Positions 7,455 to 35,363 of a DNA stretch of 45,610 nucleotides are shown here, in pieces; the stretch's first letter is position 1, and each line of letters begins with the position of its first letter. The DNA is taken from contig JAGQPS010000008.1 in assembly GCA_020426595.1 (NCBI GenBank), forward strand, positions 1 to 45,610. The letters are read 5' to 3'. This DNA is from Planctomycetales bacterium. Its GTDB lineage: Bacteria; Planctomycetota; Planctomycetia; Pirellulales; Pirellulaceae. The notes beneath the pieces are model-generated. The model saw nothing but the letters and a program-made list of their open reading frames with translations, had not been told where the DNA came from and ran no database searches. Made by a program: the position numbers and the translations under genes.

Positions 7455-8591
7455 ATGGCGGCGGCGACCATCGATTTGCGATCCGCCGATGATCCTCGCG
7501 ACATCGTCTTTCGCACGGTCCAAGCACTGGCCGAAGGGAAGCTCGTCGTCTTTCCGACCGAAACGGTCTATCTCGCGGCCGCTTCCGCATTGATTCCCGA
7601 GGCCGTGGCTCGCTTGGTGGAGGCATGCGGACAAGTCCCCCCCCAATACCGAGGCATCGCGGTCAAAAGCGGTGATGACGCACTCGATTACGTCCCCGAC
7701 CTGTCCCCCTTGGGACGGCGGCTCATGCGCCGCTGCTGGCCAGGCCCGTTACTGATCCGTTGCCGCGCCGATCACCCCGAGAGTGTACTGGCTCAACTCC
7801 CCCAAGAAACGCGCGCCCTCCTCACCCCTCAGGGGGTGGTCGGGTTGCGGGTCCCCTTTCACGATGTCATTCTGTCGGTGTTGCGATTCTCGATTGGGCC
7901 ACTGGCCGTGGTGCCGATCGATTGCGGTGGACGGATGGCGGTCACACCAGAAGAAGTGTCGGGGCAGGTGGGTGGCTCGGTCGACGTCATCCTTGATGAC
8001 GGCCGCACCAAATACGCTCAAGCCTCGACGATGATCGAGCTGGAATGGGATCGCTGGTCGACCTTGGAATCGGGAGTGATTGGTGACCTCGCGCTGCAAC
8101 GGTTGGCTTCGATGATGATTCTTTTGGTTTGCACGGGGAACACCTGCCGAAGTCCGATGGCGGAGCTGTTGATGCGCCGCCACTTGGCCAAACGATTGGG
8201 CTGTGGTATCGATCAGCTCGATCAACATGGCGTGGTGGTGGCGAGCGCGGGACTCGCGGCGGCCGCCGGTGGACGACCGTCGTCGGAGGCGGTCGAAGCG
8301 ATGGCTCGCCAAGGGCTCGACCTCGGAGAGCACCTCAGCCAACCCGCATCGGAGCGGCTGATCAAGCAGGCCGATTTGATTCTGACCATGACTCATGGAC
8401 ACCGCCAAGCGATCGTGAATCGCTGGCCCGAGCTCGCCTCGCGAACCTCGGTCGTGTCACGAGATAAACGAGACGTCGCGGATCCGATCGGTGGTCCGCT
8501 TCCGTTGTACGAAGAATGTGCCCGGCAATTGGACGATTATTTGGCGGTCTGGGCCGCCGAGCTGCCGCTGCCTGAGCGGCCGGAGACTTGA
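7455..8591 (+). CDS. Fused Sua5/YrdC-like domain and low-molecular-weight protein tyrosine phosphatase
   Basis: Residues about 12-215 are a Sua5/YciO/YrdC-type domain: PTETVY at 34-39, WPGPLLI at 95-101, VVGLRVP at 128-134. Residues 220-370 are a low-molecular-weight phosphatase with the P-loop C226-x5-R232-S233 (CTGNTCRSP) and the general-acid D343-P344. The phosphatase half looks intact. The Sua5 half departs from the canonical sequence: VYGL is replaced by VYLA, and the nucleotide-binding SANxSG stretch is replaced by VPIDCGGRMA (153-162). Whether it still makes threonylcarbamoyl-AMP for tRNA t6A is doubtful. The ATG at 7455 starts it. It ends 2 bp before rpiB, so the two are translationally linked. 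A cytoplasmic protein is expected. Confidence 0.85.
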   Translation: MAAATIDLRSADDPRDIVFRTVQALAEGKLVVFPTETVYLAAASALIPEAVARLVEACGQVPPQYRGIAVKSGDDALDYVPDLSPLGRRLMRRCWPGPLLIRCRADHPESVLAQLPQETRALLTPQGVVGLRVPFHDVILSVLRFSIGPLAVVPIDCGGRMAVTPEEVSGQVGGSVDVILDDGRTKYAQASTMIELEWDRWSTLESGVIGDLALQRLASMMILLVCTGNTCRSPMAELLMRRHLAKRLGCGIDQLDQHGVVVASAGLAAAAGGRPSSEAVEAMARQGLDLGEHLSQPASERLIKQADLILTMTHGHRQAIVNRWPELASRTSVVSRDKRDVADPIGGPLPLYEECARQLDDYLAVWAAELPLPERPET

Positions 8592-19321: not shown

Positions 19322-22318
19322 ATGACGATGGCGATGCCCAAGGATCTCGATAATCAGTCCGCGATTTGCCGGTCGAAGCAAACAAGCCGCGTTGGGACGC
19401 TCGTGTTCCGGCAAGGGCGATCCCTGCTGCTGGCGATCGGCACCGCGATGCTCATCGGTGGCGGGTTGAGTCACGGCATGTTCGCGTATGCCGAGGAACC
19501 GCTCAGCGCCCAAGATGCTGACGAGACGATCGACTACGTGCAACAGATTCGACCGTTGCTCGCGAATCGTTGCTTCAATTGCCACGGCCCCGACGACAAG
19601 ACTCGCGCGGCCGAACTACGGATCGATCGGCGCGAGGCGTTGCTGCGTGGAGGCGAAAGCGAGGAACCGGCCGTGGTGCCCGGTGATCCCGATGCGAGCG
19701 AACTGATCCTGCGAGTTCGTAGCCATGCCGACGGTTATGTCATGCCGCCCGCTGAAATTGGACCGCCACTCGGCGCCGAGGAAGTCGCGTTGCTCGAAAG
19801 GTGGATCTTGCAGGGAGCTCCGATGCAAGACCATTGGTCGTTCACGCCTCCCCAACACACCGCCGCTCCTCGAGTCGGCAACGATTGGTCGAACGCGCCA
19901 ACCGACGCGTTCATCATGCAGGGACTTCAGCAAGTCGGACTCTCGCCGGCCAATCAAGCCGAGGGAGCGATTCTGGCGAGACGTCTCGCGCTCGATATCA
20001 CGGGACTCCCACCGCATCCGGCCGACGTTCGTGAATTGGTGGAGGGAGCTCGTCCCGACGCCGTCGATCGTTATGTCGATCGCCTGCTGGCGTCGCCTGG
20101 GTACGGCGAGCGATGGGGCGCGATGTGGCTCGACATCGCGCGCTATGCCGATTCCCAAGGCTATGCCCAGGACTCGCCTCGCACGATTTGGCCGTATCGC
20201 GACTGGGTGATCGAAGCCTTCAATAGCAATCTCCCCTTCGACCAATTCACCATCGAGCAGTTGGCGGGCGACTTGCTCGAGAATCCATCGGATTCCCAAC
20301 TGATCGCCACCGCCTTCCATCGCAACACGATGACCAACAGTGAAGGCGGCACGGATGACGAGGAGTTCCGTTCGGCGGCCGTCGTCGATCGCGTGTCGAC
20401 CACCGTCTCCGTCTGGATGGGCCTGACCATGGCGTGTGCTCAATGCCACAGCCACAAGTACGATCCGATCAGTCAACAAGAGTTCTACGAGCTCTACGCG
20501 GTTTTCAATCAAACCGAGGATCGCGATCATCCGAGCGAGTTGCCGCTCCTAGAATCCGATTCGGCCGAGAACGCGGCTCGCCGAGCCGCCCTGCAAGCGC
20601 GAATCGCGCTGCTGGAACAACGGATCGCCGCCCAGGAAACCGAATCGCCTTCGCTACCGGAACTCGCGGCCGATGCCTCGCTCGCGACACGGTTCGTGCG
20701 CGTCGAGCTCATGGGCGACTCGGTCATTCTCTCCCTGGCCGAAGTGCAGGCGTTCGTCGGCGAGAACAACGTGGCCTTGGCCGGCAAGGCGACTCAGTCG
20801 AGCGATGACTACGACGCGCCCGCGAACCTGGCGAACGACGGCAACACCGATGGTCATTTCTTCGATGCCAAGAGCACGACCCATACCAAGCAAGGGCCGA
20901 ATCCCTGGTGGGAAGTCGAGCTGACCGAGCCGCACGCGTTGGAACGAATCGCGATTTGGAACCGATCGGACTCACCGAATATCGGTGACCGGCTCAAACC
21001 GTTCCGCGTCATCGGACTCAACGACCAACGTCAACCGCTTTGGATCATCCGCGGTGACGAGGCTCCCTCGCCCAGTCGCGAATGGACTCTCCCAGTGACG
21101 GCGGGAGCGCGCGACGAAGCGATGCTGCAAGCGATGGCGAGTTGGTGGACGGAGGTCGGCGCGGGAGCGACCCCCGAGGCTCGTGAACTCGCGGCGGTCC
21201 GCAAGCAACTCGCGGAACTCAAACCCGACGTCGTCACGCCGATCATGCGGCAACTGGCGGAGAATCAACAACGCGAGACGTTCATTCACGTCCGCGGCAA
21301 TTTTCGAGTCCCTGGCGACGCGGTGAATCCTGGGTTGCTCACGTCGTTTGGAAGCTATGAACCGTCGGGTCCGCCGACGCGATTGGATGTGGCTCATTGG
21401 TTACTCGACCGGAGCAACCCGCTCACGGCGCGAGTCACCGTGAACCGTTTCTGGGAACAGCTTTTTGGTGTGGGGCTTGTCGAAACGGCCGAGGATTTTG
21501 GAACCCAAGGGGCTTGGCCGACTCATCCGCGACTGCTCGATAGCCTGTCGGTGGATTTCATGGATCACGACTGGGACATGAAATGGCTGGTACGGGAGCT
21601 CACGACGAGCGCGACGTATTGCCAATCGAGCGAAGTCACTCCCGAGAAACTGGCGATCGATCCGTATGGTTCGCTCTGGTCGCGTGGTCCGCGTTTTCGA
21701 TTGTCGGCGGAGTCGATTCGGGATCAAGCGTTGGCGATTGGGGGGCTGCTTAGTCGCAAGATGTTTGGTCCCTCGGTTCGACCACCGCGCCCCAAGCTTG
21801 GTTTGAACTCGGCCTTTGGAGGCTCGACCGATTGGGATCCGAGCCCAGGCGAGGATCGAGTCCGCCGCGGGCTATACACCAGTTGGCGGCGCACGACTCC
21901 GTATCCTTCGATGACGACGTTTGATGCCACGAGCCGCGAAGTCTGCGCGCTGCGTCGCATTCGTACCAACACGCCGCTGCAGGCGCTCGTGACCTTGAAC
22001 GACCCGGTGTATGTCGAGGCGGCCCAGGGACTGGCTCGGCGCGTGCTTTTGGAAGGCCCCGACTCGCTGGACGAGCGCCTCGCGTTTCTCTTCCGCACCG
22101 CCTTGGTGCGAGAAGCGACCGACGAGGAACTCGGCGTCTTGCGTCTGGCTTACGAACAAACCCATGCACAATTGGCTGCTGATCCGGCCGCCGCGACCAC
22201 GCTCGCGACGCAGCCGATCGGCCCGCTGGCCCCGGGGCTCGAGCCCGTCGACGCGGCGACCTGGACGGTGCTGGCGAATGTGATCATGAACCTCGACGAG
22301 ATGATTGCTCGACCGTAG
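19322..22318 (+). CDS. PSCyt1-DUF1549-DUF1553 planctomycete protein with an F5/8C-like insert
   Basis: This is a 998-residue exported protein. A hydrophobic signal lies at about 34-55. A cytochrome c-like PSCyt1 domain follows, with the heme motif C84-F-N-C87-H88 and the late ligand region GYVMPP. DUF1549 spans about 194-400 and includes a second C372-A-Q-C375-H376. A beta-rich discoidin-like part at about 457-590 ([27 protein letters not shown]) follows; then DUF1553 from about 690 to the end. The domain order is the usual one for this family. Its biochemical role is not known. It precedes the DUF1501 gene by 134 bp, the standard pairing in planctomycetes, and probably forms an operon with it. 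The discoidin-like part may bind a polysaccharide. Confidence 0.9.
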
Positions 22319-22452
22319 TCGGCCCGCGCTCGGCTCGACCGCATGGGCGGGCCGGAGAGGCGGGAACGGGTCGAGACTCAACAGCGAATGGAACACGGTC
22401 CGCGTGACCAAAACGGATACCGCGACCGACTTGCAGATAGAGAGGCGACACG

Positions 22453-23952
22453 ATGCAACCGAATTCCGCACGACGCTCGAAAGTCCTCACGCCAAGTTTT
22501 GGCGCTCACCCATTGGGCGACGTGACTCGGCGACAGTTCCTCGGCGGTGGTTCCCTCGGACTAGGCGCCGCGGCGATGGCGATGATGTCGGGACTCGGGT
22601 CCTCGGCCCGAGCGGACATCGAACTGGATGACAAGCAGCCTCTCGCCGAACGTCCGCCGCACTATCCGGGCAAGGTCAAGCAGGTGATCTTCCTGCACAT
22701 GGCGGGATCGCCCCCGCATCTCGATCTATTCGATTACAAGCCTCAATTGGTCGAGCGCAATGGACAGGACTGTCCCGACGAGTTTTACGAAGGCAAGCAA
22801 TTCGCCTTCACCAGCGCTCGTCCCACGCTGCTCGGCACGCCCCATCAATTCAAGCAACACGGTGAATCGGGCGCGTGGATGTCCGATGCCTTGCCGCGAC
22901 TGTCGGAACTCGCCGATGACCTGTGCTTCATCAAGAGCATGCACACCGAGCAGTTCAATCATGCTCCGGCCGAGATGCTGCTCTATACCGGCTCGCCCCG
23001 CATGGGCCGACCCGCGATGGGCTCGTGGGTGACCTATGGGCTCGGTACCGAGAATCAAAACCTGCCTGGCTTCGTCGTGCTCGTGTCGGGAGGCTCGAAT
23101 CCGAGCGCCGGCAAGAGCGTTTGGGGAAGTGGCTTTCTCCCGAGCGTGTTCCAAGGAGTGCAATGCCGCAGCCAGGGCGACCCCGTCCTCTATGTTTCGG
23201 ATCCGGATGGCATGAGCCGCGATGTACGGCGGCTCAGCCTGGACGCGATGCGTGATTTGAATCAGCTCCAGTCGGATCGCTTCGGTCATCCCGAAACCGC
23301 CACGCGAATCGCGCAATACGAATTGGCCTTCCGCATGCAGATGGCGGTGCCGGAAGCGATGGATATCTCTCGCGAATCGGCCGAGACGATCGAGGCCTAC
23401 GGCGCGCAGCCAGGACAGGCGAGTTTCGCCAATAACTGCCTGTTGGCTCGACGGTTGATCGAGGATGGCGTGCGTTTCGTGCAGCTCTTCGATTGGGGCT
23501 GGGACTTCCACGGAACCGGTGCCGGCGAGGACATTCGAGATGGCCTGACCAACCGCTGTCGTCCCATGGACCAAGCGGTCTCCGCGCTCATCCGCGACCT
23601 GAAGGCTCGCGGCATGTTCGAGGAAACACTCATCATCTGGTCGGGCGAATTTGGCCGGACACCGTTCCGCGAGGGACGAACGGCGAAGGGCGATCTTCTC
23701 GGTCGCGATCACTTTCCCGATTGCTACACGATGTTCATGACCGGAGGAGGCGTGAAGCGTGGTTTCACGTATGGAGCGAGTGACGAGCTTGGCTTCACCA
23801 TCGCCGAGAACCCGGTCCACGTTCACGACCTGCAGGCGACGATCTTGCACCTGCTGGGCCTCAACCACCTCAACCTGACGCATCGCTTCCAAGGTCGCGA
23901 CTATCGTCTGACCGACATCCACGGCGAGTTGATCGAACCGATCCTGGCCTGA
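22453..23952 (+). CDS. Tat-exported DUF1501 protein
   Basis: The 499-residue product has a twin-arginine signal (DVTRRQFLGGG, residues 23-33, then a hydrophobic stretch). The mature part belongs to DUF1501, with an alkaline-phosphatase/sulfatase-like fold. It shows HMAGSPPHLDLFDYKP near 80-95, SMHTEQFNHAPAE near 163-175, FGRTPF near 400, and GGGVKRGFTYGASDELG near 433-449. The family's function is unknown. It is nearly always encoded next to a DUF1549/DUF1553 protein, as here. The ATG at 22453 is preceded by AGATAGAGAGGCGACACG, a reasonable ribosome binding site. Confidence 0.9.
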   Translation: MQPNSARRSKVLTPSFGAHPLGDVTRRQFLGGGSLGLGAAAMAMMSGLGSSARADIELDDKQPLAERPPHYPGKVKQVIFLHMAGSPPHLDLFDYKPQLVERNGQDCPDEFYEGKQFAFTSARPTLLGTPHQFKQHGESGAWMSDALPRLSELADDLCFIKSMHTEQFNHAPAEMLLYTGSPRMGRPAMGSWVTYGLGTENQNLPGFVVLVSGGSNPSAGKSVWGSGFLPSVFQGVQCRSQGDPVLYVSDPDGMSRDVRRLSLDAMRDLNQLQSDRFGHPETATRIAQYELAFRMQMAVPEAMDISRESAETIEAYGAQPGQASFANNCLLARRLIEDGVRFVQLFDWGWDFHGTGAGEDIRDGLTNRCRPMDQAVSALIRDLKARGMFEETLIIWSGEFGRTPFREGRTAKGDLLGRDHFPDCYTMFMTGGGVKRGFTYGASDELGFTIAENPVHVHDLQATILHLLGLNHLNLTHRFQGRDYRLTDIHGELIEPILA

Positions 23953-23957
23953 GTCGC

Positions 23958-24818
23958 CTAGCCGTCGATGAGCCCACGCAACGTGGCGAGGTTGATATCG
24001 TCCCACGTTGTTTCCTCGTGGTCCCCCTTGGGCGTTTCGAGGTACATGGGGATGCGACGGAAACGCTTGTCGTTGAGCAAGTGGCGGAATGGCTCGAGAC
24101 CCAACGAGCCTTGTCCGATGTGCTCGTGGCGATCCTTGCGCGAACCAAGATCGCCCTTGCTGTCGTTGAGATGAAACGCGAGCACTCGTTTGAGCCCGAC
24201 CTTGGCCTTGAGTTCCTTCATCGTCGCTTCATAGGTCTCGGGGGTCCGCATGTCATAGCCCGCCGCGTGCGCGTGGCAGGTATCGAAGCAGATTCCGATG
24301 CGATCGGGATCGGCGACTTGATCGATCATTGCCGCGAGTTGCTCGAAACGCCAACCGAGGTTACTGCCTTGACCGGCGGTGTTCTCGAGGAGCACCATCG
24401 CGCCGTCCGGATCGGCTTGGCGATGAACCTCATTCAAGGACTCGGCGATTCGTGCGATGCCCTCTTCCTCGGTGCTCGTCGTGTACGAACCGGGATGCAC
24501 GACGACATGGGGGATGCCGAGTTGCGTGGCTCGAGCAAGCTCGACCACCATCGCCTCGATTGACTGATTGCGTAGGCCCTCCTCGGGCGAACCCATGTTG
24601 ATCAGATAGGAAGCGTGGGAGATCGTTCGCCGCACTCCCGTTTTCTCTAGCGCCTCGCGGAACGCCGCGACGTCATCATCGGTGATCGGCTTGGCTCGCC
24701 ACTGATTGTTGTTCTTGGTGAACAACTGCACGCAGTTCATGTCGCACGCGGCGGCGGCCTCGACCGCTTTGTAGTAACCACCGGCGATCGACATGTGAGC
24801 GCCAAGAAACTCGGGCAT
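23958..24818 (-). CDS. nfo: Endonuclease IV (AP endonuclease)
   Basis: The 286-residue protein matches the Nfo family end to end. It starts LGAHMSIAGGYYKAVE, includes VVHPGSY, LLENTAGQG, CFDTCHAHAAGYD (family signature 2) and HLNDSKGDLGSRKDRHEHIGQG (signature 3), with the many His/Asp/Glu zinc ligands. The enzyme cuts the backbone 5' of abasic sites in base-excision repair. It is convergent with the DUF1501 gene (5 bp between stops) and is otherwise unconnected. The ATG at 24818 is used. Confidence 0.95.
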   Translation of the reverse strand: MPEFLGAHMSIAGGYYKAVEAAAACDMNCVQLFTKNNNQWRAKPITDDDVAAFREALEKTGVRRTISHASYLINMGSPEEGLRNQSIEAMVVELARATQLGIPHVVVHPGSYTTSTEEEGIARIAESLNEVHRQADPDGAMVLLENTAGQGSNLGWRFEQLAAMIDQVADPDRIGICFDTCHAHAAGYDMRTPETYEATMKELKAKVGLKRVLAFHLNDSKGDLGSRKDRHEHIGQGSLGLEPFRHLLNDKRFRRIPMYLETPKGDHEETTWDDINLATLRGLIDG

Positions 24819-24966: not shown

Positions 24967-26055
24967 TCAGCGTGAGGCCGCCTCTTGGCGAGCCGCTTCA
25001 AGCACCTCGGCGATCGCGACTGGCGCTCCGTTTCGCGCCAGGCTCTCGTCGGCCGCCGTCATGAACGCGTAGAGCTCGATCGTTTCCGCCGGTTCGATCG
25101 GGGCCTCACCCGAACGGAAAAACCGTGCGATCTCGACAACGAGCGGTCGGTAGCCGTCAAAGTTCCCAAGGGAGCGAATTTCGTTCGAGCCGTAGACCAC
25201 GCCTCCGTATCCCGCCTTTCCCTTGCGAATCCCGCGAAACGTTCCGATGCGTCCATCACTCCAAACGCCAGTGGCGAAATCAAAATCATCGGAGTGCGCG
25301 CGACTCACCGTCTCGCAGCCCGCTCCCATGACCGTGTACAGGATCTCGACGCCGTGAATGCCGTACCAGTAAAGACTGGGATGAGTCGCCTCGAGGGAGC
25401 AGGGACTATACGCCTCGCAGCCCAGCACGTCGCCCGCTTCACCATTCCGCGCGGCTTGGGGCCCCGATGAGAAACGCAGACTCGAGCACGAGAAGACCGG
25501 TGCGTCATGAGCCGCGGCGACGTCGTAGATCGCCACGATGTCGGCGAGCGAAGCGGCGAGTGGCTTGTCAATGAAACATGGCTTTTTGGTCGCGGCGATC
25601 AAGCGGTACTGCTCGAGATGCAAGCGACCATCGTTGGTCTCCAGCAACACACAATCGCATTTCTCGAGTAACTCGGGAATCGACTCCGCGATCTCCACAC
25701 CCATCGCCTTGATTTGTTCGGTGTAGCCTGGGATGCGGCTAGCGCTCGATTCGATATCCGCGCTCCCGTAGGGATAGGCGACCGTGACTCGAAAGCCCGC
25801 CACGTCCTCCGCGGGATTCTCGCCATTGAAGATCTCGGTGAAAGCCAAGCTGTGACTTGTGTCGAGTCCAATCACGCCAATACGCACAGGCTCGTCGGCG
25901 ATCAACGGTCGCGCGCCAATCAAGGCAAGCAGAGCCACGCAGGCTCCCCACAGCAATCCCCGGCGCGACAAGCGTGGCCGAGTGAGTCGAGCCAGGATGG
26001 AGTGGTTAGAGGCGAGCAAAAGGGGGGCACTCGATGTCCGATTCCCAACGGTCAT
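24967..26055 (-). CDS. Secreted Gfo/Idh/MocA-type oxidoreductase
   Basis: The 362-residue protein starts at the ATG at 26053-26055. A basic region with SRRGLLWG and a hydrophobic stretch (about residues 25-50, ending near PLIADE) suggests Tat or Sec export. The Rossmann domain begins RIGVIGLDTSHSLAFTEI, a form seen in planctomycete oxidoreductases where the usual glycine-rich loop is changed. It continues through ETNDGRLHLEQ and FIDKPLAAS, with Lys as the likely catalytic residue. The C-terminal half is the beta-sheet substrate domain. The substrate, probably a sugar or inositol derivative, is unknown. It is divergent from the 1566-residue mosaic protein. Confidence 0.85.
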   Translation of the reverse strand: MTVGNRTSSAPLLLASNHSILARLTRPRLSRRGLLWGACVALLALIGARPLIADEPVRIGVIGLDTSHSLAFTEIFNGENPAEDVAGFRVTVAYPYGSADIESSASRIPGYTEQIKAMGVEIAESIPELLEKCDCVLLETNDGRLHLEQYRLIAATKKPCFIDKPLAASLADIVAIYDVAAAHDAPVFSCSSLRFSSGPQAARNGEAGDVLGCEAYSPCSLEATHPSLYWYGIHGVEILYTVMGAGCETVSRAHSDDFDFATGVWSDGRIGTFRGIRKGKAGYGGVVYGSNEIRSLGNFDGYRPLVVEIARFFRSGEAPIEPAETIELYAFMTAADESLARNGAPVAIAEVLEAARQEAASR

Positions 26056-26126
26056 GGTCGGTTCTCCAGTGGGGCGGGGAAGGCATGCGACGGCGAGGTT
26101 AATCGGCCGGCACGGCGGTGGACCAG

Positions 26127-26132
26127 TATAAT
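26127..26132 (+). promoter_or_regulatory. Candidate -10 element in a divergent intergenic region
   Basis: TATAAT occurs 93 bp upstream of the ATG at 26225, in the 169-bp space between two divergent genes. No good -35 hexamer is seen 17 bp upstream. It could serve the + strand gene. Confidence 0.3.
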
Positions 26133-26224
26133 GCCAGCGACGCCGCCGCGAGTACCGCCGACCGCCAAGGCCCAATCCGACTGCCCGGCCGCTCTCCCAC
26201 CTTTCACTTGGAGACTCGTCCAAG

Positions 26225-29200
26225 ATGTCAGCTCCGCGCATCCGCATTCGTTGGCGATTTCTTTTGTCGGTCGGACTTCTAATTGCCGGCATCTGGGCTC
26301 CATGTTTGTGCTCGCTGGATTCCAAGTGCGTGGCTCAAGACGCTGAGTCGCCAGGAGAGCACTGGCAGCAGGGCGACGAGTATCAGATCGGAGTCGCGTC
26401 GATCGACATCACGCCGAACCACCCCATTCGATTGAATGGTTTTGGTTTTCGTCGTGAGGAAGCCGCCGATGTCGGCCTGCGTCTCGGTGCTCAAGCGCTC
26501 GCGATTAGCCAAGGCGATGAACCGCCGATCGTACTCGTGACGCTCGACAGCTTGGGATTGCGAATGTCGATGGCCGACGAGGTGGCGGCTCGATTGGCCG
26601 AATCGCATGGGTTGCCGCGAGAGAACTTGGCGTTTGCCTTCTCACACTCGCACTGCACGCCGAAACTGGCCGGTGCTTGTGACACCATCTTCAGCACGCC
26701 GATTCCCGCCGAGCACCAAACGCATATCGATCGTTACACCGAACGACTCACCAATGACTTGGTCGCGGTGGTGCAGGACGCGATCGACGGAAGACAACCT
26801 GGCTTCTTGAATTGGGCGACCGGGTCGGTCGGTTTCGCCGTGAATCGCCGCACCGCGGGCGGGCCGGTCGATCACTCACTGCCGGTATTGATCGCTCGAA
26901 CGAAGGACGGAGAGCTCCTGGCGCTGCACACCGCCTACGCCTGTCACTGCGTGACGTTGTCGTACAACCGGTTGAGTGGCGATTGGGCGGGCTACGCGCG
27001 GGAGGCGATTGAACGCCGGTGGCCGGGAGTCACTGGGTTGGTCGCGATCGGGTGCGGTAGCGACTCAAACCCGGACTCGGGAGTGACGGGAGACGGTGAG
27101 GCGATCGCCGCCGCGCAGGGTCAACAGATTTGCGATGAAATCGCCCGGCTACTCGACACTCCAGGGATTCCCATCCACGGCGCGCCGGTCGCGCGACTCG
27201 CGCGGATCGACCTCCCTCTGTTGCCGCTACCGACTCGTGAACAATGGGAAGTTCTGGCGAAGGAAGCATCTCCGGCGGGTTACAACGCACGGTGGCAACT
27301 CGCACGACTCGACGCGGGCGAGCCACTGCTCGATCACCTGGACTATCCCGTCCAGACCTTTCGCTTCGGCAACGATCTTGGCGTGGTGTTGCTGGCCGGA
27401 GAGGTGTGTGTCGATTATGCGCATCGGCTCAAACGCGAACTGAATGTCGACCGTCTATGGACCACCGCGTACGCGAATGACTTCTGTGCCTACATTCCAT
27501 CCGAGCGATTGCGGCAAGAGGGAGGCTACGGGGGTGGCGCCGAAGTCGTGTACTTCGCGCTCCCCGCGACGCTGGCTGAGGGACTTGAGCAACGCATCGT
27601 CGACGAAGTGAAGCGACAATTGCCCGAGGACTGGCAGGTGCCGCCTGGCACCAACGGCTCGCCGGCCAACGATCCACAATCCTCACTCCGCAAGTTTCGC
27701 ATCGACCCGCGTTTCCAAATCGAACCGGCGGTGACCGAGCCGTTGATCGATGATCCGGTCGCGATCGACTTTGGCCTCGATGGATCCCTTTGGGTCTGTG
27801 AGATGCCGGACTACGCGAGGGAAGTGGAAGGCGAGTTCTCGCCCCATGGGCAAGTACGGTTGGTGCGCGACACGGACGGCGACGGTCGCTACGATCAATC
27901 GACCGTCTTCCTCGAGGGGCTGCGATTTCCAACCGATGTCAAGGTCTGGCGTGATGGAGTGCTCGTGTGCGACGCGCCGCGAGTGTTGCTCGCCCGTGAT
28001 ACCGACGGCGATGGGCGCGCGGATGATGTCCGCACATTGCTGACCGGATTCGCGACTCATAATCCGCATGCACGAGTCAACAGTCTGCGCTGGGGTTTGG
28101 ACGGTTGGCTGTATGGCAGTTGCGGCCTCTTTGGTGGAACGATTCAGGTGTTTCACGACGCACCCGACGCGATGCCCGCTGGCGCGCCGGTGGCCTTGGG
28201 TGGACGCGACTTTCGCTGGCAACCCGATCTTGCTCGATTGGAACCCGTGACGGGAACAACTCAGCAAGGCCGCTCTCGTGATGACTTTCAGCGTTGGTAT
28301 GGCTGCGATAACGGAACGCTCATCCGTCACTATCCGATTCCACTCGGTCCCACGATCGGCTCGTTAACGTCGCCACCCTCGGCGATCGATCCTACGGTGG
28401 ACGATCGTCCGGGAGTGCTGTTTCCCCCGCGCGACCTTGTCTTGTTTGAACTCTCGGGCCCCGCGGGGCGTCCGACCAGTGCCTGCGGACTGGAGATCTC
28501 GAGAACGCCTTCACTAGGCGTTGACTTGTATGGGAACTCGTTCACGTGCGAACCGGTGAACCAGTTGATTCATCGCCGCGTGCTCCGCGATACGCCTCGA
28601 GGCATCAGTGCGATGCGCGCCAGCGACGAACAAGATCGCGAATTCCTGTCGTCGACCGACCGGTGGTTTCGCCCCGTGCAGGTGCGTATCGGCCCCGATG
28701 GTGGTCTGTGGGTGGTCGACATGGTGCGATATGTGATCGAGCATCCGCGTTGGATTCCCGAAGCGACTCGAGCCGAAACCAATGTCTTCGCGGGGCAGGG
28801 GCTCGGCCGGCTGTGGCGTATCTCGGGACGAACCGAGTCTCATGCGACGCCGTGGCCCGTCGACGAACAAGACGACGAGGGACTGCTTGCCGCGTTTACC
28901 TCAAGGAACGGCGTCTTACGAGACTTGGCTCATCAACGAATCATTTGGGACGAGCGCGAGGATCTTGCCTCGGCGATTCGACAAGTCGCGCTGCACGACG
29001 ACTGGCCAGCGACTCGAGCCCAGGCATGGCATACTCTCGCGCGGCTGAACGAGTTGACCGAGGCGGATGAGCGGGCGATCCTGGCGGAAACCGACTCGGA
29101 TGCGGTCGCGGTGACGCTGCCACTCATTCAACATTGGGATGCCGCGCGACTAGCCACGCTCAGAGAGCAACTTGGTTCAACCGAGGCTGCCGACACCATG

Positions 29201-30925
29201 CCTTCGAGCTCGCGGCGCGCGATGCTCGGCACACTCGCTCGATCCCAGGATCCTATGTCGATCGAGTGGATCATGCGGCAGCTCCCCACGCTCACCGATC
29301 CATGGGACCAATACGAAGTGTTGCGACACGTCGATCGCGACGCGGCACCGCTTTGGCTCTCGGCGCTGACCCAAGCCGATGCATCGACCAATTCCTCTTG
29401 GACTTGGGAACTTGCGAATGCGTTGATCGAAAGAAATCTCTCGCCCGAGAGCTGGAAACAGTGGTTGCTGGAGGTCGATCGGCCGGCGATCCGATCGGCG
29501 ATTTCCTCGGGGCGCCTCGATGCCTTGTTGTTTCGTTTGCAATCCGTTCGGCCAGCCGAGGCGACGTCCGAGAGTCTTTCACCGGCGTTGCGATTGGCCT
29601 GGCAAGACCGGCTCCAAACGCTCCGCATTGAGCTGGAAACGACCGACGCGACCAACCAGCTCGCGGCTCGGTTGCTCGAATCCGCTTGGCTCGTTCCGGA
29701 CATCGAATCCGACCTGCTTGAGTTTGTTGACCCGCGACGAACCGGCTCGGCGCAGCGAGCCGTTGTCGAGGCGCTCGCGGGTCAGGGAGGAGCGACCCAA
29801 CAACGTCTCTGGGATGCCTTGCGAAATGGATCTCCCAACCTGCAGCAGTTCGCCGTTGACTTGTGGCTGGAGCGGGAGGACACGAGGTCGACACTGATTC
29901 GTTGGCTCGAGGATCCCGAGCATCCCGTGCGACAGGTCATGACGAGGCAGCAACAGTCGAGACTCTTGGAGACCGTCCCCGCGGAAACGGCGGAGCGTCT
30001 TCGAGCACGATGGGCGATTCCAGCCATGCCCGACGAGGCCGATCTGTTGGCTCGTTACTTGGAGGCGTCGTCCCGCGATCCGGATCTCGCGCAAGGCTCT
30101 CGCTTATTCGATCAACACTGCGCGAACTGTCATCAGGCCGACGCGCAAGGCAAGCGGCTCGGTCCCGACCTCAACGCGCTTTCGTCACCCAGTTCCGAAT
30201 CGTTGACGCGATCGATCCTGTTTCCGTCCCACGACATCGACGCGAAGTATCGGAGCGTCGTGATTACCACCGACGACGGGCGGACCGTATCGGGTTTGTT
30301 GCTCGACGAGGGCGAAACCATGGTCCAGCTACGGACCTCGCCGACCGAACAAGAATCGGTGGCTCGCGAGTCGATTGAATCCTTGACCCCGAGCCGTGTC
30401 TCGTTCATGCCCGCGGGACTTCATGAATCCTTGCCACCGGATGCGATGCGCGATCTGGTCGGATTCTTGCTTATTCCCAAGATCGCGCCGAAGCAGCTCC
30501 CTGGTAACGAACCAAGGGTGATCACGATCGACTCGAGTCACGAAATCGAGTTCCCGGCCGCGGCGGCCGAGATACGGGGCGGCGACATCGGCTTTGAGAC
30601 CACGTTTCAGAATGTTGGATTCTGGCATGGCGAAACGGACTCGGTCAGCTGGCCTCTCACGATTGAAGCGGAGGGGACCTACCGCGTGGTCTTGGAACTA
30701 GCCTGCGATCCCGCGAGCGCCCACAACCGCCTGCGTTTGTCTCTTGGCACGGAAGTCCTGGAAGCCGAGGTGCCCAGTACCGGAGCTTGGAGCCAATACG
30801 AATCGTTGTCGATCGGGCAGGTGGAGCTCAAGCCTGGCCGCGGGCGGATGGCGGTGACGGCGGCCGGCCCGCTGCGAGGGGCCTTGTGCGACCTGAAGGG
30901 CATTCGACTGGAACGTGTCGATTGA
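26225..30925 (+). CDS. 1566-aa mosaic: ceramidase-like, PVC dehydrogenase, HEAT-like, heme c, C-terminal binding domain
   Basis: A signal peptide is at residues 1-38. Residues about 55-470 resemble the N-terminal part of neutral (non-lysosomal) ceramidases, with AFSHSHCTPKLAG, HTAYACHCVTLS and GCGSDSNPD in family order. Residues about 490-870 resemble the PVC-type membrane-bound dehydrogenase domain (GLDGSLWVCEMPDYA, RLVRDTDGDGRYD, LARDTDGDGRADDV). Residues about 880-1270 are helical and HEAT-like. Then comes a heme c domain with C1299-A-N-C1302-H1303 and the VPRE-like stretch of that family. The last 150 residues form a beta-rich domain resembling a carbohydrate-binding module. The frame is continuous with no stop or frameshift. 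A periplasmic role linking a hydrolase to electron transfer is inferred only from the domains. Confidence 0.8.
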   Translation: MSAPRIRIRWRFLLSVGLLIAGIWAPCLCSLDSKCVAQDAESPGEHWQQGDEYQIGVASIDITPNHPIRLNGFGFRREEAADVGLRLGAQALAISQGDEPPIVLVTLDSLGLRMSMADEVAARLAESHGLPRENLAFAFSHSHCTPKLAGACDTIFSTPIPAEHQTHIDRYTERLTNDLVAVVQDAIDGRQPGFLNWATGSVGFAVNRRTAGGPVDHSLPVLIARTKDGELLALHTAYACHCVTLSYNRLSGDWAGYAREAIERRWPGVTGLVAIGCGSDSNPDSGVTGDGEAIAAAQGQQICDEIARLLDTPGIPIHGAPVARLARIDLPLLPLPTREQWEVLAKEASPAGYNARWQLARLDAGEPLLDHLDYPVQTFRFGNDLGVVLLAGEVCVDYAHRLKRELNVDRLWTTAYANDFCAYIPSERLRQEGGYGGGAEVVYFALPATLAEGLEQRIVDEVKRQLPEDWQVPPGTNGSPANDPQSSLRKFRIDPRFQIEPAVTEPLIDDPVAIDFGLDGSLWVCEMPDYAREVEGEFSPHGQVRLVRDTDGDGRYDQSTVFLEGLRFPTDVKVWRDGVLVCDAPRVLLARDTDGDGRADDVRTLLTGFATHNPHARVNSLRWGLDGWLYGSCGLFGGTIQVFHDAPDAMPAGAPVALGGRDFRWQPDLARLEPVTGTTQQGRSRDDFQRWYGCDNGTLIRHYPIPLGPTIGSLTSPPSAIDPTVDDRPGVLFPPRDLVLFELSGPAGRPTSACGLEISRTPSLGVDLYGNSFTCEPVNQLIHRRVLRDTPRGISAMRASDEQDREFLSSTDRWFRPVQVRIGPDGGLWVVDMVRYVIEHPRWIPEATRAETNVFAGQGLGRLWRISGRTESHATPWPVDEQDDEGLLAAFTSRNGVLRDLAHQRIIWDEREDLASAIRQVALHDDWPATRAQAWHTLARLNELTEADERAILAETDSDAVAVTLPLIQHWDAARLATLREQLGSTEAADTMPSSSRRAMLGTLARSQDPMSIEWIMRQLPTLTDPWDQYEVLRHVDRDAAPLWLSALTQADASTNSSWTWELANALIERNLSPESWKQWLLEVDRPAIRSAISSGRLDALLFRLQSVRPAEATSESLSPALRLAWQDRLQTLRIELETTDATNQLAARLLESAWLVPDIESDLLEFVDPRRTGSAQRAVVEALAGQGGATQQRLWDALRNGSPNLQQFAVDLWLEREDTRSTLIRWLEDPEHPVRQVMTRQQQSRLLETVPAETAERLRARWAIPAMPDEADLLARYLEASSRDPDLAQGSRLFDQHCANCHQADAQGKRLGPDLNALSSPSSESLTRSILFPSHDIDAKYRSVVITTDDGRTVSGLLLDEGETMVQLRTSPTEQESVARESIESLTPSRVSFMPAGLHESLPPDAMRDLVGFLLIPKIAPKQLPGNEPRVITIDSSHEIEFPAAAAEIRGGDIGFETTFQNVGFWHGETDSVSWPLTIEAEGTYRVVLELACDPASAHNRLRLSLGTEVLEAEVPSTGAWSQYESLSIGQVELKPGRGRMAVTAAGPLRGALCDLKGIRLERVD

Positions 30926-31352: not shown

Positions 31353-31585
31353 CGGCGACGCTGCGATTAAGTAATTGGAAACGGCCGCGCCGTTCACCTT
31401 TGGCCAGATCAATTCAACTTGGGCCAAATCGAGCTTTGATGTTCGTGCTGGATTCCCTTTCAGCTCATAAGCGGCAGGGAACCCGGACTGGTGAATAGCG
31501 ATGTTCGCGATGCGACGAGGCAATCTTGTCGCCGCGCGACTCGGGCGCTGCCGGACTCAGACATTACGAAGAACACGAGTCCTCG

Positions 31586-32203
31586 ATGACCGACCCCACA
31601 TCGCCATTCGATGAACCCACGTCTCTTGCCTTGATCGCCGATGCGAGGCGGAAAGTGCCCGAGGCATGGCGGAAGATCCACCAGCTGTACGGCCCGCTTG
31701 TCTATGCATGGTGCCGTGAATGGCGCGTCCCCGAGCAGGATGCCGTCGATTTGGTTCAAGACGTCTTTCGCAACGTGATTCGGCGTTTGGATAGCTTCCA
31801 ACACGAAACGGACGAGGATTCGGCTGGGAAGTCTCGGGGGTCCTTTCGCGCTTGGATCTGGACGATCACGCGCAACAAGGTACGGGACTATTGGCGCGTT
31901 AACCCGCGCCGTCCGGTGGCCGTGGGCGGCACGGACATGCAGCAGCACATGATGCAGATTCCGGAATGGGAGATGGACTCAGCCGGACAAGTCGCCCAAG
32001 TCAGCGAACTGGCGAAGCAGGTGTTGCGTTTGATTCAAACCGAGTTTGAAGAACGTACGTGGACCGCTTTTTGGCGGGTGGTGGTTGATGGTCAATCGAT
32101 CTACACCGTGGCCAACGACCTTGAGATGTCGGAAGGAGCCGTACGACAGGCCAAGTATCGTGTCCTGCGGCGTGTTCGTGAGGAACTGCAAGACGTCGCT
32201 TGA
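31586..32203 (+). CDS. ECF-family RNA polymerase sigma factor
   Basis: The 205-residue product has sigma region 2 (about 28-115: WRKIHQLYGPLVYAWCREW, DAVDLVQDVFRNVIRRL, SFRAWIWTITRNKVRDYWR) and region 4 (about 155-203: VVVDGQSIYTVANDLEMSEGAVRQAKYRVLRRVREEL, a helix-turn-helix). Region 3 is absent, as is normal for extracytoplasmic-function sigma factors. Starts at 31526 (TTG) and 31586 (ATG) are possible, and the ATG is closer to the homologous region. It lies 259 bp before the protein kinase gene, a gene pair common in planctomycetes. The promoter it recognises is unknown. Confidence 0.92.
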   Translation: MTDPTSPFDEPTSLALIADARRKVPEAWRKIHQLYGPLVYAWCREWRVPEQDAVDLVQDVFRNVIRRLDSFQHETDEDSAGKSRGSFRAWIWTITRNKVRDYWRVNPRRPVAVGGTDMQQHMMQIPEWEMDSAGQVAQVSELAKQVLRLIQTEFEERTWTAFWRVVVDGQSIYTVANDLEMSEGAVRQAKYRVLRRVREELQDVA

Positions 32204-32462
32204 TCGCCGCGAGGCATCCCGGGAAAGCTGATCGGCGGCGGTTTTCAAATCGCTGGCGCGAAAACGATAAAACGAGCCTGCCGAGCCATTAAACTGCACA
32301 TGCTTGGGGCCGATGGACCGCGCGAGAGAATCTGGCGAGTGTCCCTAGATTCGCGGAGTGCCTTGGCGAGTCCGGTTCGAGCCTGAATCAATTCGGGATA
32401 CGCGAGCCTATTCAGCTCTTCCTTGTAATGCGGAATTCCTCCCGAATCGGCGGCGGTGGGAC

Positions 32463-35363
32463 ATGGGTTTCAGTGGATTCGACGACTCGCTTCGCCCAGG
32501 GGCGAACTGTCCCGATCCAGCATCGATGCGCGATGTCATTCTGGGCGACGCCGTCCGCTCCCTTGCTCAGTCGGTCTTGGACCATCTCGGTCGATGCGCG
32601 ACCTGTCGTCGGACCTTCGATCAACTCGAGCAGCAACTGCTCGATCAAGTATGGGTGGCCGAACTGGGACAGGAAACGGCGCACTTCAACCACGAGCCTG
32701 GCTTGCGCGACACGGTCCAGCGTCTCGGACAGGTCGCGGAGGAGTACCTCGAGGAATCGACCGCCGGCGACGCGAGCGACTCCGGTTCGGACGCGGATCC
32801 GTTCGCCCATTTGCCGCTGCTACTCCGGGACTACTCGCTGCTGATGAGAATCGGAAGCGGCGGCATGGGCTTGATCTTCAAGGCCCAACATCGGCGACTG
32901 AATAAACCGGTCGCCATCAAGGTGCTTCGCCCCGATTTGTCCGTCGACGTTCGCCAATCGTTCGAACGAGAAATCAAGGCGATGGGAAGCGTCGAGCATC
33001 CGCTAATCGCTCGAGCCACCGATGCGTTCACCGAACGGGGCCGCACGTTCTTGGTGATGGAGTACATCGACGGCTGGAATCTAGCCCAAGTCGTGACTCG
33101 CTGTGGTCCGCTCTGCTGCGAGGATGCCAAGGCGATCGTGAGACAAGTCGCGTTGGCGATGGACTTCGCCCATCTGCGAGGCGTCGCGCACGGTGACATC
33201 AAACCGTCGAACGTGATGCTGACGCGTGACGGCGGACTCAGGATCCTGGATCTTGGATTGGCCGAAAGGCTTTCCAAGGAGTCGCTCGCGGGCATCCTCG
33301 ATTCGCGAGGCGACCGAGAGGCCGGTGGCCAAGTGCTTGGCGGCGACGACGAGGCAAGTGCGAGCCAGGCTCCTCTCGAGGAAGATTCCCTTGAGTGTGC
33401 CGTCGAAGTGCGTCGCGATGTCGTCGCCCTCGGCGATATGTTGTTCCGGCTGACCACAGGAAAGTCGCCCCAGCTGGGCGCGTCCATTCACTTACGCGAT
33501 CGACTGGCGAACGAGGCCGAGCTGCGTCGTTGCTGCCCGAGCGCGCCCGATGACCTCGTCGCGCTCTATGCCGAATTGAAATCGCTCGCGCCACCCTTTC
33601 GCTTTCGTCACATGCTGTCGGTAGTACAAGGACTCGACCGGCTCGAGGTGGGCGAAGCGGTCGAGCTCGATGTTTCCGCGACGGACACGACCTATGAAAT
33701 CGCCCAGGCGCTGAGGGAATTTCGCCGTAATGTGCGGCGTCCCGGCGGGCTCGTGCCCAATTCGACGTTCCTCCCAAACGAAACCAGTGCGAATGGAGCA
33801 AGCCTCAAGCCGCGAGTGAATCGCGTGACGGCGGCACTAGGCCTCGCTCTTGCCATCACCACGTTGGTCGCCTTGATTTTCGCGGGAGTGAACCTTGGGA
33901 CGCGGAACCGCTCCGCCAGCGCCCTGAGCGCGAGTTCGGCGAGTCGTTCCGGTCAGCGGGGACTGGAATCCGCATTGGCGGGTCGCGGCTCGGATCGACT
34001 CTTGGGGACCGCGATTTCGATCGATCGAGTCGGGAGCGATCATTCCTCGCCCAGTTGGGACTTTCAAGAACGAGCCAGATTCTTCCTACGAGGTCGAGCG
34101 ATTCTCGATCTGCGTTGGACCTCCACCGAACCGAATCACCTCCTGATCCGTCGCAATCGAAGGATGAGCAGCTTCGCGATCGACGCTTGGGGACGCTCCA
34201 TCACCAATACGCCCACCGGTATCGGCTCGATGACCATCGACTTACCCAAAGGTCTGAATGGTCCACAAGTCCAAGACCTGATTGGGAACTCCACAGCTCG
34301 CTCGTCGCGTTTCGGAATCGCGCTTGACCAAGAGACCGGCACGGCCGTGCTGCCGATCGCCGATGGTGGCTTTCTGCGTTTACACGCCACGTCCCTGGAG
34401 CGGATGCCGGCCTCGTCGCACATCAACCGTATGGGAGCCGTCTGTTTTGTTCCACGACACAACGTTTGGCTCGTCGCGCTGCAAGGCGAGCTTTACTTGT
34501 TCAATCAAACCTTGACCGACCTGCTTGCGCGAGCCAAGTGGGACTTCTCTCCAAAGAGAATGACGGCCGATCCCGGCGGGCGATGGGTCCTGCTCGAGGG
34601 CGATGAGGATCACCAGATCGGTTTGGTCGAGGTCCTCGAGAAGGAAATCGTCACGCATGACTTCACCGCCCTGCCCGAACGCCGCTGGCTGAGCGTGGGA
34701 TTCTGGCGGGGCGGCGGGTCATCATCCAACCAAGACTCGTTGACCGCGGACTGGAACCAATCCTTGGGAGGCGGCAGCGACGAATACGCCGTCTCGCTGG
34801 TCTTCGTGTTTGGTAACGCTCTTGAAATCGTCAATGGCTCGCGATTGGAAAACGGAGATCTGCGGTGGCAATCGACCCTCGAGTTGATGCGGTTCGTGGA
34901 CGATCGACCGGCCGACGCGAGGGCCGAGATTGCTCAACTCTGCGAGAGTGTTCCGGTGGCGATCGTTGGCTTCCATGCGGGAGGTATCGAACTTTGGGAT
35001 CTGGAAACACGAGGACTCATGGGGCGATTTGGCGTGACCGAACTTGTGGATCGAATCGTCATGATGGAAGCCAACCAGGACGTGTCATGCATCGCGGTCG
35101 CCGATAGCTCGGGAGTCGTGAGAGTCTTTGGGAGACAGCCACTGGAGGCGAACAATCAAGAAGTGACCATCGTGAAAGTGATCGACGAGGAGGTCGTCAG
35201 CCAGGTCGACTCCTCACCGGTTCATGAGACCCACTCCGATTCGGTTGAGAAGCCAGCCATGCCTGCTGGCGATACCGAGCCCCCCGAGTCGTCACACGCG
35301 GAAGGCGTGGGAGAGACGCCCAACAAGTCGGCCCTCCCGGCGGTGACGGCACCGAATCAGTAG
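32463..35363 (+). CDS. Membrane serine/threonine kinase with an N-terminal anti-sigma-type zinc motif and C-terminal propeller-like sensor
   Basis: This is a 966-residue protein. Residues 41-48 read H-L-G-R-C-A-T-C, an HX3CX2C motif as in zinc-binding anti-sigma factors. The kinase domain spans about 123-390: GSGGMG (131-136), K153 in AIKVL, HGDIKPSN (243-250, with HGD in place of HRD) and DLG (263-265). The activation segment is abnormal: no GTPxYMAPE follows, and about 40 residues later the chain resumes with RRDVVALGDMLFRLTTGKSP. Activity may be changed or lost. A membrane helix lies at about 455-478. The last 480 residues are extracytoplasmic, beta-rich, with WD-like repeats. It follows the ECF gene by 259 bp. 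A GTG start at 32358 would add 35 residues. Confidence 0.85.
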   Translation: MGFSGFDDSLRPGANCPDPASMRDVILGDAVRSLAQSVLDHLGRCATCRRTFDQLEQQLLDQVWVAELGQETAHFNHEPGLRDTVQRLGQVAEEYLEESTAGDASDSGSDADPFAHLPLLLRDYSLLMRIGSGGMGLIFKAQHRRLNKPVAIKVLRPDLSVDVRQSFEREIKAMGSVEHPLIARATDAFTERGRTFLVMEYIDGWNLAQVVTRCGPLCCEDAKAIVRQVALAMDFAHLRGVAHGDIKPSNVMLTRDGGLRILDLGLAERLSKESLAGILDSRGDREAGGQVLGGDDEASASQAPLEEDSLECAVEVRRDVVALGDMLFRLTTGKSPQLGASIHLRDRLANEAELRRCCPSAPDDLVALYAELKSLAPPFRFRHMLSVVQGLDRLEVGEAVELDVSATDTTYEIAQALREFRRNVRRPGGLVPNSTFLPNETSANGASLKPRVNRVTAALGLALAITTLVALIFAGVNLGTRNRSASALSASSASRSGQRGLESALAGRGSDRLLGTAISIDRVGSDHSSPSWDFQERARFFLRGRAILDLRWTSTEPNHLLIRRNRRMSSFAIDAWGRSITNTPTGIGSMTIDLPKGLNGPQVQDLIGNSTARSSRFGIALDQETGTAVLPIADGGFLRLHATSLERMPASSHINRMGAVCFVPRHNVWLVALQGELYLFNQTLTDLLARAKWDFSPKRMTADPGGRWVLLEGDEDHQIGLVEVLEKEIVTHDFTALPERRWLSVGFWRGGGSSSNQDSLTADWNQSLGGGSDEYAVSLVFVFGNALEIVNGSRLENGDLRWQSTLELMRFVDDRPADARAEIAQLCESVPVAIVGFHAGGIELWDLETRGLMGRFGVTELVDRIVMMEANQDVSCIAVADSSGVVRVFGRQPLEANNQEVTIVKVIDEEVVSQVDSSPVHETHSDSVEKPAMPAGDTEPPESSHAEGVGETPNKSALPAVTAPNQ

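What the first reader, a model, noticed from the sequence alone, without database searches (positions are those of the whole stretch)
26225..30925. Ceramidase-like hydrolase fused to PVC dehydrogenase, HEAT-like, heme c and binding domains
The open frame is uninterrupted from signal peptide to C-terminus, and four or five domains can be recognised. The dehydrogenase-heme part alone is common in planctomycetes, but a lipid-amidase-like front end is an unusual combination. It suggests that hydrolysis of an N-acyl substrate could be coupled to oxidation of the released product.
Basis: partly seen in the sequence, partly recalled or inferred. Interest (0 to 1): 0.6.

Follow-up and report, generated by a model that had tools for sequence, protein, structure and literature searches.

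The report
Ceramidase-fold hydrolase on heme-propeller chassis
A planctomycete makes one large, probably exported protein that joins a zinc amidase-type domain of the neutral-ceramidase fold to a beta-propeller, a heme c domain and a sugar-binding-like domain; the same build is common in related bacteria, and its relatives' gene neighbourhoods suggest that it works on amino sugars rather than on ceramide lipids.

Summary
One open frame, 26225-30925 (+), encodes 1566 aa: export-type N-terminus; neutral-ceramidase-fold domain (residues 45-476); DUF7133/TIGR02604 six-bladed propeller (484-867); HEAT-like stretch; TIGR02603 heme c domain with CANCH; weak CBM35/6-like tail. Three parts of the interpretation need change. 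(1) The fusion is not unusual: 32 of 40 family loci and 59 of 80 species loci (Planctomycetota, Verrucomicrobiota) carry it, several in single-contig genomes; other hydrolase modules (CE4, ThuA, GDSL) sit on the same chassis. (2) It is probably not a lipid ceramidase: the GDVSPN serine is Asn, the C-terminal ceramidase domain is absent, and stand-alone homologues sit in NagA/NagB-like amino-sugar operons in four alphaproteobacterial families and beside sugar-catabolic genes in haloarchaea. (3) Coupling to oxidation is unsupported: the propeller resembles PQQ sugar dehydrogenases in fold, but 22 of 24 genomes with the fusion lack PqqC and no sGDH-like catalytic His is conserved. Best reading: a metal-dependent N-acyl (amino-)sugar amidase on a heme-bearing, sugar-binding scaffold. 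Not described in the literature searched; moderate interest.

The parts
26225..30925 (+). Fused gene, 1566 aa
   Evidence: ORF list; congener G017 has the same architecture
26225..26335 (+). Probable export signal, residues about 1-37 (basic N-terminus then hydrophobic stretch)
   Evidence: read by eye from the translation; no signal-peptide program was available
26357..27652 (+). Neutral-ceramidase-fold hydrolase domain, residues 45-476
   Evidence: PF04734 37.1 bits over cut-off; profile vs 2zws E 6e-20; AF2 model vs 2zws Z 38.2, 390 aligned
26645..26653 (+). Codons of His141-Ser-His143 (HxH motif; His141 = zinc ligand His97 of the P. aeruginosa enzyme, His143 = its His99)
   Evidence: invariant in 42 sequences; aligned with 2zws His97/His99
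26945..26947 (+). His241, zinc ligand (P. aeruginosa His204)
   Evidence: invariant in 42; aligned
27068..27070 (+). Asn282, in the place of the conserved Ser of the ceramidase GDVSPN hexapeptide
   Evidence: alignment with canonical planctomycete ceramidases that keep GDVSPN; N 39, G 2, D 1 of 42
27401..27403 (+). Glu393, zinc ligand (P. aeruginosa Glu411)
   Evidence: invariant in 42; aligned
27491..27493 (+). Tyr423, zinc ligand (P. aeruginosa Tyr448)
   Evidence: invariant in 42; aligned
27674..28825 (+). DUF7133/TIGR02604 six-bladed propeller, residues 484-867
   Evidence: Pfam E 6e-117; TIGR02604 over cut-off; AF2 model nearest to PQQ sugar dehydrogenases, Z 25.7
28826..30079 (+). HEAT-like helical stretch, residues 868-1285
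   Evidence: Pfam HEAT_2 at this place in homologues only
30080..30469 (+). TIGR02603 heme c domain, residues 1286-1415
   Evidence: TIGR02603 over cut-off; homologous to diheme cytochrome Kustd1711, PDB 7zs0, E 5e-9
30119..30133 (+). CANCH heme-attachment motif, residues 1299-1303
   Evidence: motif scan
30521..30922 (+). CBM35/6-like C-terminal domain, residues 1433-1566
   Evidence: weak, below cut-off: CBM_35 E 7e-4; homologues hit CBM_6, also below cut-off

Best explanation
The protein is a probably exported, modular enzyme. Its N-terminal domain is a zinc-dependent amidohydrolase of the neutral-ceramidase fold, from a short branch that lacks the C-terminal ceramidase domain and the GDVSPN serine. 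Zinc, held by His141, His241, Glu393 and Tyr423, would activate water for attack on an N-acyl amide, with His143, an Arg of the NRR motif and Tyr435 around the site. The substrate is most likely an N-acylated amino sugar or a related N-substituted sugar, not ceramide. The rest of the chain is a chassis common in Planctomycetota and Verrucomicrobiota: a propeller of PQQ-sugar-dehydrogenase-like fold, HEAT-like repeats, one heme c and a sugar-binding-like tail. It would hold different hydrolases at the same redox and sugar-binding surface. Shown: ORF, domains, fold, conserved metal ligands, conservation of the fusion, module swapping, sugar-catabolic contexts of stand-alone relatives. Inferred: export, catalysis, substrate, and that the heme passes electrons in a step that may act on the same sugar.
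For: Fold and family. Invariant H97, H99, R164, R165, H197, D209, E349, Y379, Y391 (domain numbering) in 42 sequences. Ser to Asn change and lack of PF17048, with a planctomycete canonical ceramidase (L081) as positive control for both. Stand-alone homologues in a conserved order LacI, NagB-like, SIS isomerase, NagA-like, ceramidase-like, sugar ABC transporter in Nitratireductor, Ponticoccus, Martelella and Microvirga, four alphaproteobacterial families; NagA-like TIGR00221 E 1e-55 and NagB-like TIGR00502 E 2e-31, both below equivalog cut-offs. In haloarchaea the gene lies beside DegT-type aminotransferase, sugar isomerase, sulfatase and Gfo/Idh/MocA genes. The Lacipirellula stand-alone copy is followed 119 bp downstream by a PfkB sugar kinase. 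In the own genome the same chassis carries a CE4 polysaccharide-deacetylase module, ThuA (three), GDSL (two) and FG-GAP modules; in a relative CE4 and ceramidase-like modules occur in one 2348-aa chain.
Against: No activity data for any member of this short branch were found. The alphaproteobacterial and haloarchaeal relatives are only about 24-34% identical to the window domain and may have another substrate. No strongly conserved neighbourhood was found around the fused genes themselves. The NagA-like and NagB-like genes score below their equivalog cut-offs. The CBM assignment is weak. Loss of the GDVSPN serine could also mean a weak or different hydrolase.
Confidence: 0.5

Rival explanations
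1. One reading: an N-acyl lipid amidase whose released product is oxidised by the attached dehydrogenase, with electrons leaving through the heme.
For: Ceramidase fold with intact zinc site; propeller nearest in fold to PQQ sugar dehydrogenases; heme c domain over cut-off.
Against: GDVSPN serine replaced, PF17048 absent; PqqC in only 2 of 24 genomes with the fusion, none of 4 single-contig ones, no PqqE over cut-off in the own genome; no conserved His where sGDH has its base; sugar contexts; stand-alone copies nested in the fused clade.
Confidence: 0.1
2. Amidase plus dehydrogenase acting in sequence on one sugar substrate: the hydrolase unmasks an amino sugar, and the propeller (with scavenged PQQ or another cofactor) oxidises it through the heme.
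For: PQQ sugar dehydrogenases and AA12 fill the 16 best structural matches, Z 22-26; heme homologue Kustd1711 has a potential of about +350 mV (PMC11791136), fit for an electron sink; the fusion is kept in most lineages.
Against: PQQ synthesis mostly absent; catalytic-His equivalent not conserved in the fused clade although a His is present in CE4-type paralogues; general six-bladed propellers score only slightly lower, about 21.5-22.
Confidence: 0.25
3. The hydrolase domain is a degenerate, non-catalytic relative used for binding, and the protein is a structural or signalling surface component.
For: Key serine lost; the other chassis modules include non-enzymatic FG-GAP; in both congeners the gene is followed by an ECF sigma factor and a Ser/Thr kinase.
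Against: All metal ligands and neighbouring polar residues are invariant in 42 sequences down to about 35% identity, which is not expected of a dead site.
Confidence: 0.1

Closest known systems
Neutral/alkaline ceramidase (PF04734; PDB 2zws, 4wgk)
   Same: Catalytic-domain fold (Z 38 and 36); zinc ligands; HxH; two Tyr of the site
   Different: GDVSPN serine is Asn; C-terminal domain PF17048 missing; fused to a propeller and heme; only about 18% identical
PVC-type heme-binding CxxCH proteins (TIGR02604 with TIGR02603; DUF7133)
   Same: Propeller, HEAT-like part and heme c domain, both models over cut-off
   Different: Carries the ceramidase-like module in front; paralogues in this genome carry none or another module
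PQQ-dependent soluble sugar dehydrogenases (PF07995; AA12)
   Same: Fold of the propeller, Z 25.7
   Different: No PF07995 hit; no conserved catalytic-base His; PQQ synthesis mostly absent from host genomes
Diheme cytochrome Kustd1711 of Kuenenia (PDB 7zs0; PMC11791136)
   Same: Heme domain homologous, E 5e-9
   Different: Kustd1711 has two such domains and no hydrolase or propeller
Planctomycete-specific cytochrome c (PSCyt) proteins with CBMs in Verrucomicrobia (PMC5615132)
   Same: PVC proteins joining heme and sugar-binding domains; a carbohydrate role was suggested there
   Different: Different domain families (PSCyt1-3, PSD); no ceramidase-like domain in the passages read

Membership tests
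Neutral ceramidase superfamily (PF04734 fold) | Sequence score over the family's curated cut-off and the ceramidase catalytic fold | tested here: met
   37.1 vs 32.1 bits; Z 38.2 to 2zws over 390 residues
Bona fide neutral ceramidase | Zinc ligands His, His, Glu, Tyr (P. aeruginosa 97, 204, 411, 448; identity of the ligands from own knowledge) | tested here: met
   invariant in 42 sequences
Bona fide neutral ceramidase | GDVSPN hexapeptide (described as conserved and important for ceramidase activity, PMC5874051) | tested here: not met
   GSDSNPD in the window; Ser replaced by Asn in 39 of 42
Bona fide neutral ceramidase | C-terminal Ig-like domain PF17048 | tested here: not met
   present in control L081, no hit in the window protein
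Bona fide neutral ceramidase | Hydrolysis of ceramide | not testable with these tools
   needs an assay
PVC-type heme-binding CxxCH protein (TIGR02604/TIGR02603) | Both models over cut-off and a CxxCH motif | tested here: met
   220.9 vs 122.2 and 94.5 vs 68.15 bits; CANCH at 1299
PQQ-dependent sugar dehydrogenase | Six-bladed propeller of the sGDH/Asd type | tested here: met
   16 best structural matches are of this kind, Z 22-26
PQQ-dependent sugar dehydrogenase | PF07995 sequence score | tested here: not met
   no PF07995 hit up to E 1
PQQ-dependent sugar dehydrogenase | Catalytic base His of sGDH | tested here: inconclusive
   no His conserved in that segment in the fused clade; CE4-type paralogues have one; the register of the remote alignment is uncertain
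PQQ-dependent sugar dehydrogenase | Supply of PQQ (synthesis genes in the host) | tested here: not met
   PqqC in 2 of 24 genomes with the fusion; uptake of PQQ is not excluded
CBM35/CBM6 | Score over the Pfam cut-off | tested here: not met
   20.4 bits vs 28

The most novel reading that the evidence does not exclude
The short, Ser-less branch of the neutral-ceramidase superfamily is an unrecognised family of zinc N-acyl-amino-sugar amidases, used inside the cell by alphaproteobacteria and haloarchaea and mounted by PVC bacteria on an interchangeable heme-propeller chassis that holds many kinds of hydrolase next to an electron-transfer domain.
Probability: 0.35. Interest if true: 0.65.

Novelty: new variant of a known kind. 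Interest (0 to 1): 0.42.

Why it matters
Automatic annotation calls these proteins 'neutral/alkaline non-lysosomal ceramidase', which points to sphingolipids; the evidence here points to amino sugars, so many annotations in Planctomycetota, Verrucomicrobiota, haloarchaea and alphaproteobacteria may mislead. It also shows that the abundant, uncharacterised PVC heme-propeller proteins are a platform with swappable hydrolases, which makes their role in glycan breakdown directly testable.

Tried and rejected
Assembly artefact or chance fusion: rejected, full-length fusion in the congener and in four single-contig genomes. Cys next to the changed motif (GCGSD) as a new nucleophile: rejected, the column holds C 27, A 12, L, S, F of 42. 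Conserved neighbourhood of the fused gene: none strong, only generic DUF1501/DUF1549 pairs, sulfatases and Gfo/Idh in some loci. The TIM-barrel neighbour at 23961-24818 as a sugar isomerase: rejected by eye, it reads as endonuclease IV. Single origin of the fusion without reversals: not supported, the tree needs 13 changes against 32.5 in shuffles, with stand-alone copies nested in fused clades (quick tree with long-branch warnings). Literature on this architecture: nothing found. PDB homologues of the window hydrolase by single-sequence search: none, a family profile was needed.

Full report
Observation. The window holds one uninterrupted frame from 26225 to 30925 on the + strand, 1566 aa. 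Pfam and NCBIfam find DUF7133 (484-867), the TIGR02604 PVC domain, the TIGR02603 heme domain with a cytochrome c core, and a weak CBM35-like tail. The N-terminal part scanned alone scores 37.1 bits for Ceramidase_alk against a cut-off of 32.1. The congener G017 carries the same full-length protein, 68% identical in this domain.

The hydrolase domain. A profile of 42 related domains finds the two solved neutral ceramidases at E 6e-20 and 3e-19 and nothing else up to E 1. The AF2 model has mean pLDDT 95 and aligns with 2zws at Z 38.2 over 390 residues, 2zxc 37.9 and 4wgk 35.7; the next chain has Z 5.2. The alignment puts His141, His241, Glu393 and Tyr423 on the four zinc ligands of the P. aeruginosa enzyme (His97, His204, Glu411, Tyr448; the identity of the ligands is from own knowledge). 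All are invariant in 42 sequences, as are His143, the two Arg of the NRR motif and Tyr435. [quoted passage not shown] The counterparts of the His and the two Tyr are kept here, and the NRR motif offers the Arg. The Ser of GDVSPN is replaced by Asn in 39 of 42. Canonical ceramidases of other planctomycetes, used as controls, keep GDVSPN, and one tested carries the C-terminal domain PF17048; the window protein has neither. So it is a member of the superfamily with an intact metal site, but not a canonical ceramidase.

The fusion is common. Of 40 family loci read in full, 32 have the hydrolase and propeller in one frame; of 80 species-level loci, 59 do, in Planctomycetota and Verrucomicrobiota, while the Poribacteria loci have the hydrolase alone. 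Four of the genomes with the fusion are single contigs. On a quick tree the fused state needs 13 changes against 32.5 in shuffles, with stand-alone copies such as that of Lacipirellula nested among fused ones: an old fusion with later splits, or repeated joins. In the own genome other DUF7133 chains carry a CE4 polysaccharide-deacetylase module, ThuA three times, GDSL twice and FG-GAP; relatives add a nucleoside hydrolase, or CE4 and ceramidase-like modules in one chain. The fusion is one instance of a modular scheme.

Substrate. Stand-alone homologues give the best clue. In four alphaproteobacterial families the gene lies in the order LacI regulator, NagB-like, SIS isomerase, NagA-like deacetylase, ceramidase-like, sugar ABC transporter. 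In haloarchaea it lies beside DegT-type aminotransferases, sugar isomerases, sulfatases and Gfo/Idh oxidoreductases, in various combinations. In Lacipirellula a PfkB kinase follows. These point to amino sugars or other modified sugars. The identity to the window domain is about 24-34% for these distant relatives, so the transfer of substrate is inference. One Agrobacterium context is different, and the Arthrobacter one is uninformative next to the gene.

The redox part. The propeller model (pLDDT 90) is nearest to PQQ sugar dehydrogenases and AA12 enzymes (Z 22-26), with ordinary six-bladed propellers close behind at about 21.5-22. There is no PF07995 hit. PqqC is found in 2 of 24 genomes that carry the fusion and in none of the four single-contig ones; the own genome has no PqqE over cut-off. 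Where sGDH has its catalytic His, the fused clade has no conserved His, while CE4-type paralogues have one; the only invariant His of the domain is far downstream. The remote alignment is weak there, so this point is inconclusive. The heme domain is sound: TIGR02603 over cut-off, CANCH, and homology to Kustd1711, whose hemes have about +350 mV (PMC11791136). Thus electron transfer is likely, but oxidation of the hydrolysis product by a PQQ enzyme is not supported.

Context in the window. A Gfo/Idh/MocA gene lies divergently upstream. An ECF sigma factor and a Ser/Thr kinase follow, and the same order is kept in the congener, which suggests linked regulation; a promoter-like match lies between (consensus only).

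Literature. No paper on DUF7133/TIGR02604 function, on planctomycete neutral ceramidases, or on this architecture was found in the library. The nearest is a study of Verrucomicrobia that reports PSCyt proteins with CBMs and suggests a carbohydrate role (PMC5615132).

Verdict. The anatomy is real and correctly read; the rarity and the lipid-oxidation mechanism are not supported. The most likely role is a zinc amidase for N-acylated (amino) sugars on a heme-bearing chassis, at about even odds.

Noticed in passing
window 31526-32203 and 32358-35363 (+): ECF-type sigma factor and Ser/Thr kinase directly downstream; the same order behind the fused gene in the congener G017 (62% and 38% identity).
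   Followed up: partly
window 24970-26325 (-): Divergent Gfo/Idh/MocA-type oxidoreductase with an apparent export signal; its listed TTG start overlaps the fused gene, an internal ATG near 26055 is more likely.
   Followed up: no
window 19322-23952 (+): Pair of PSCyt1/DUF1549/DUF1553 and DUF1501 genes, a typical planctomycete pair.
   Followed up: no
window 7455-8591 (+): Sua5/YrdC domain fused to a low-molecular-weight phosphotyrosine phosphatase domain in one frame.
   Followed up: no
window 1907-5089 (+): 1060-aa ORF without any Pfam match up to E 0.001.
   Followed up: no
L221, L222, L225, L226: Conserved alphaproteobacterial amino-sugar operon that includes a stand-alone ceramidase-like gene between a NagA-like gene and a sugar ABC transporter.
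   Followed up: partly
L076 5086-12129 (-): 2348-aa chain joining CE4 deacetylase, FG-GAP, ceramidase-like, DUF7133, HEAT, heme c and CBM-like parts.
   Followed up: partly
L121, L123, L132 (second ORF): Verrucomicrobial pair: the fused protein is followed by a second long DUF7133 chain with a very divergent ceramidase-like part, 22-23% identical.
   Followed up: no
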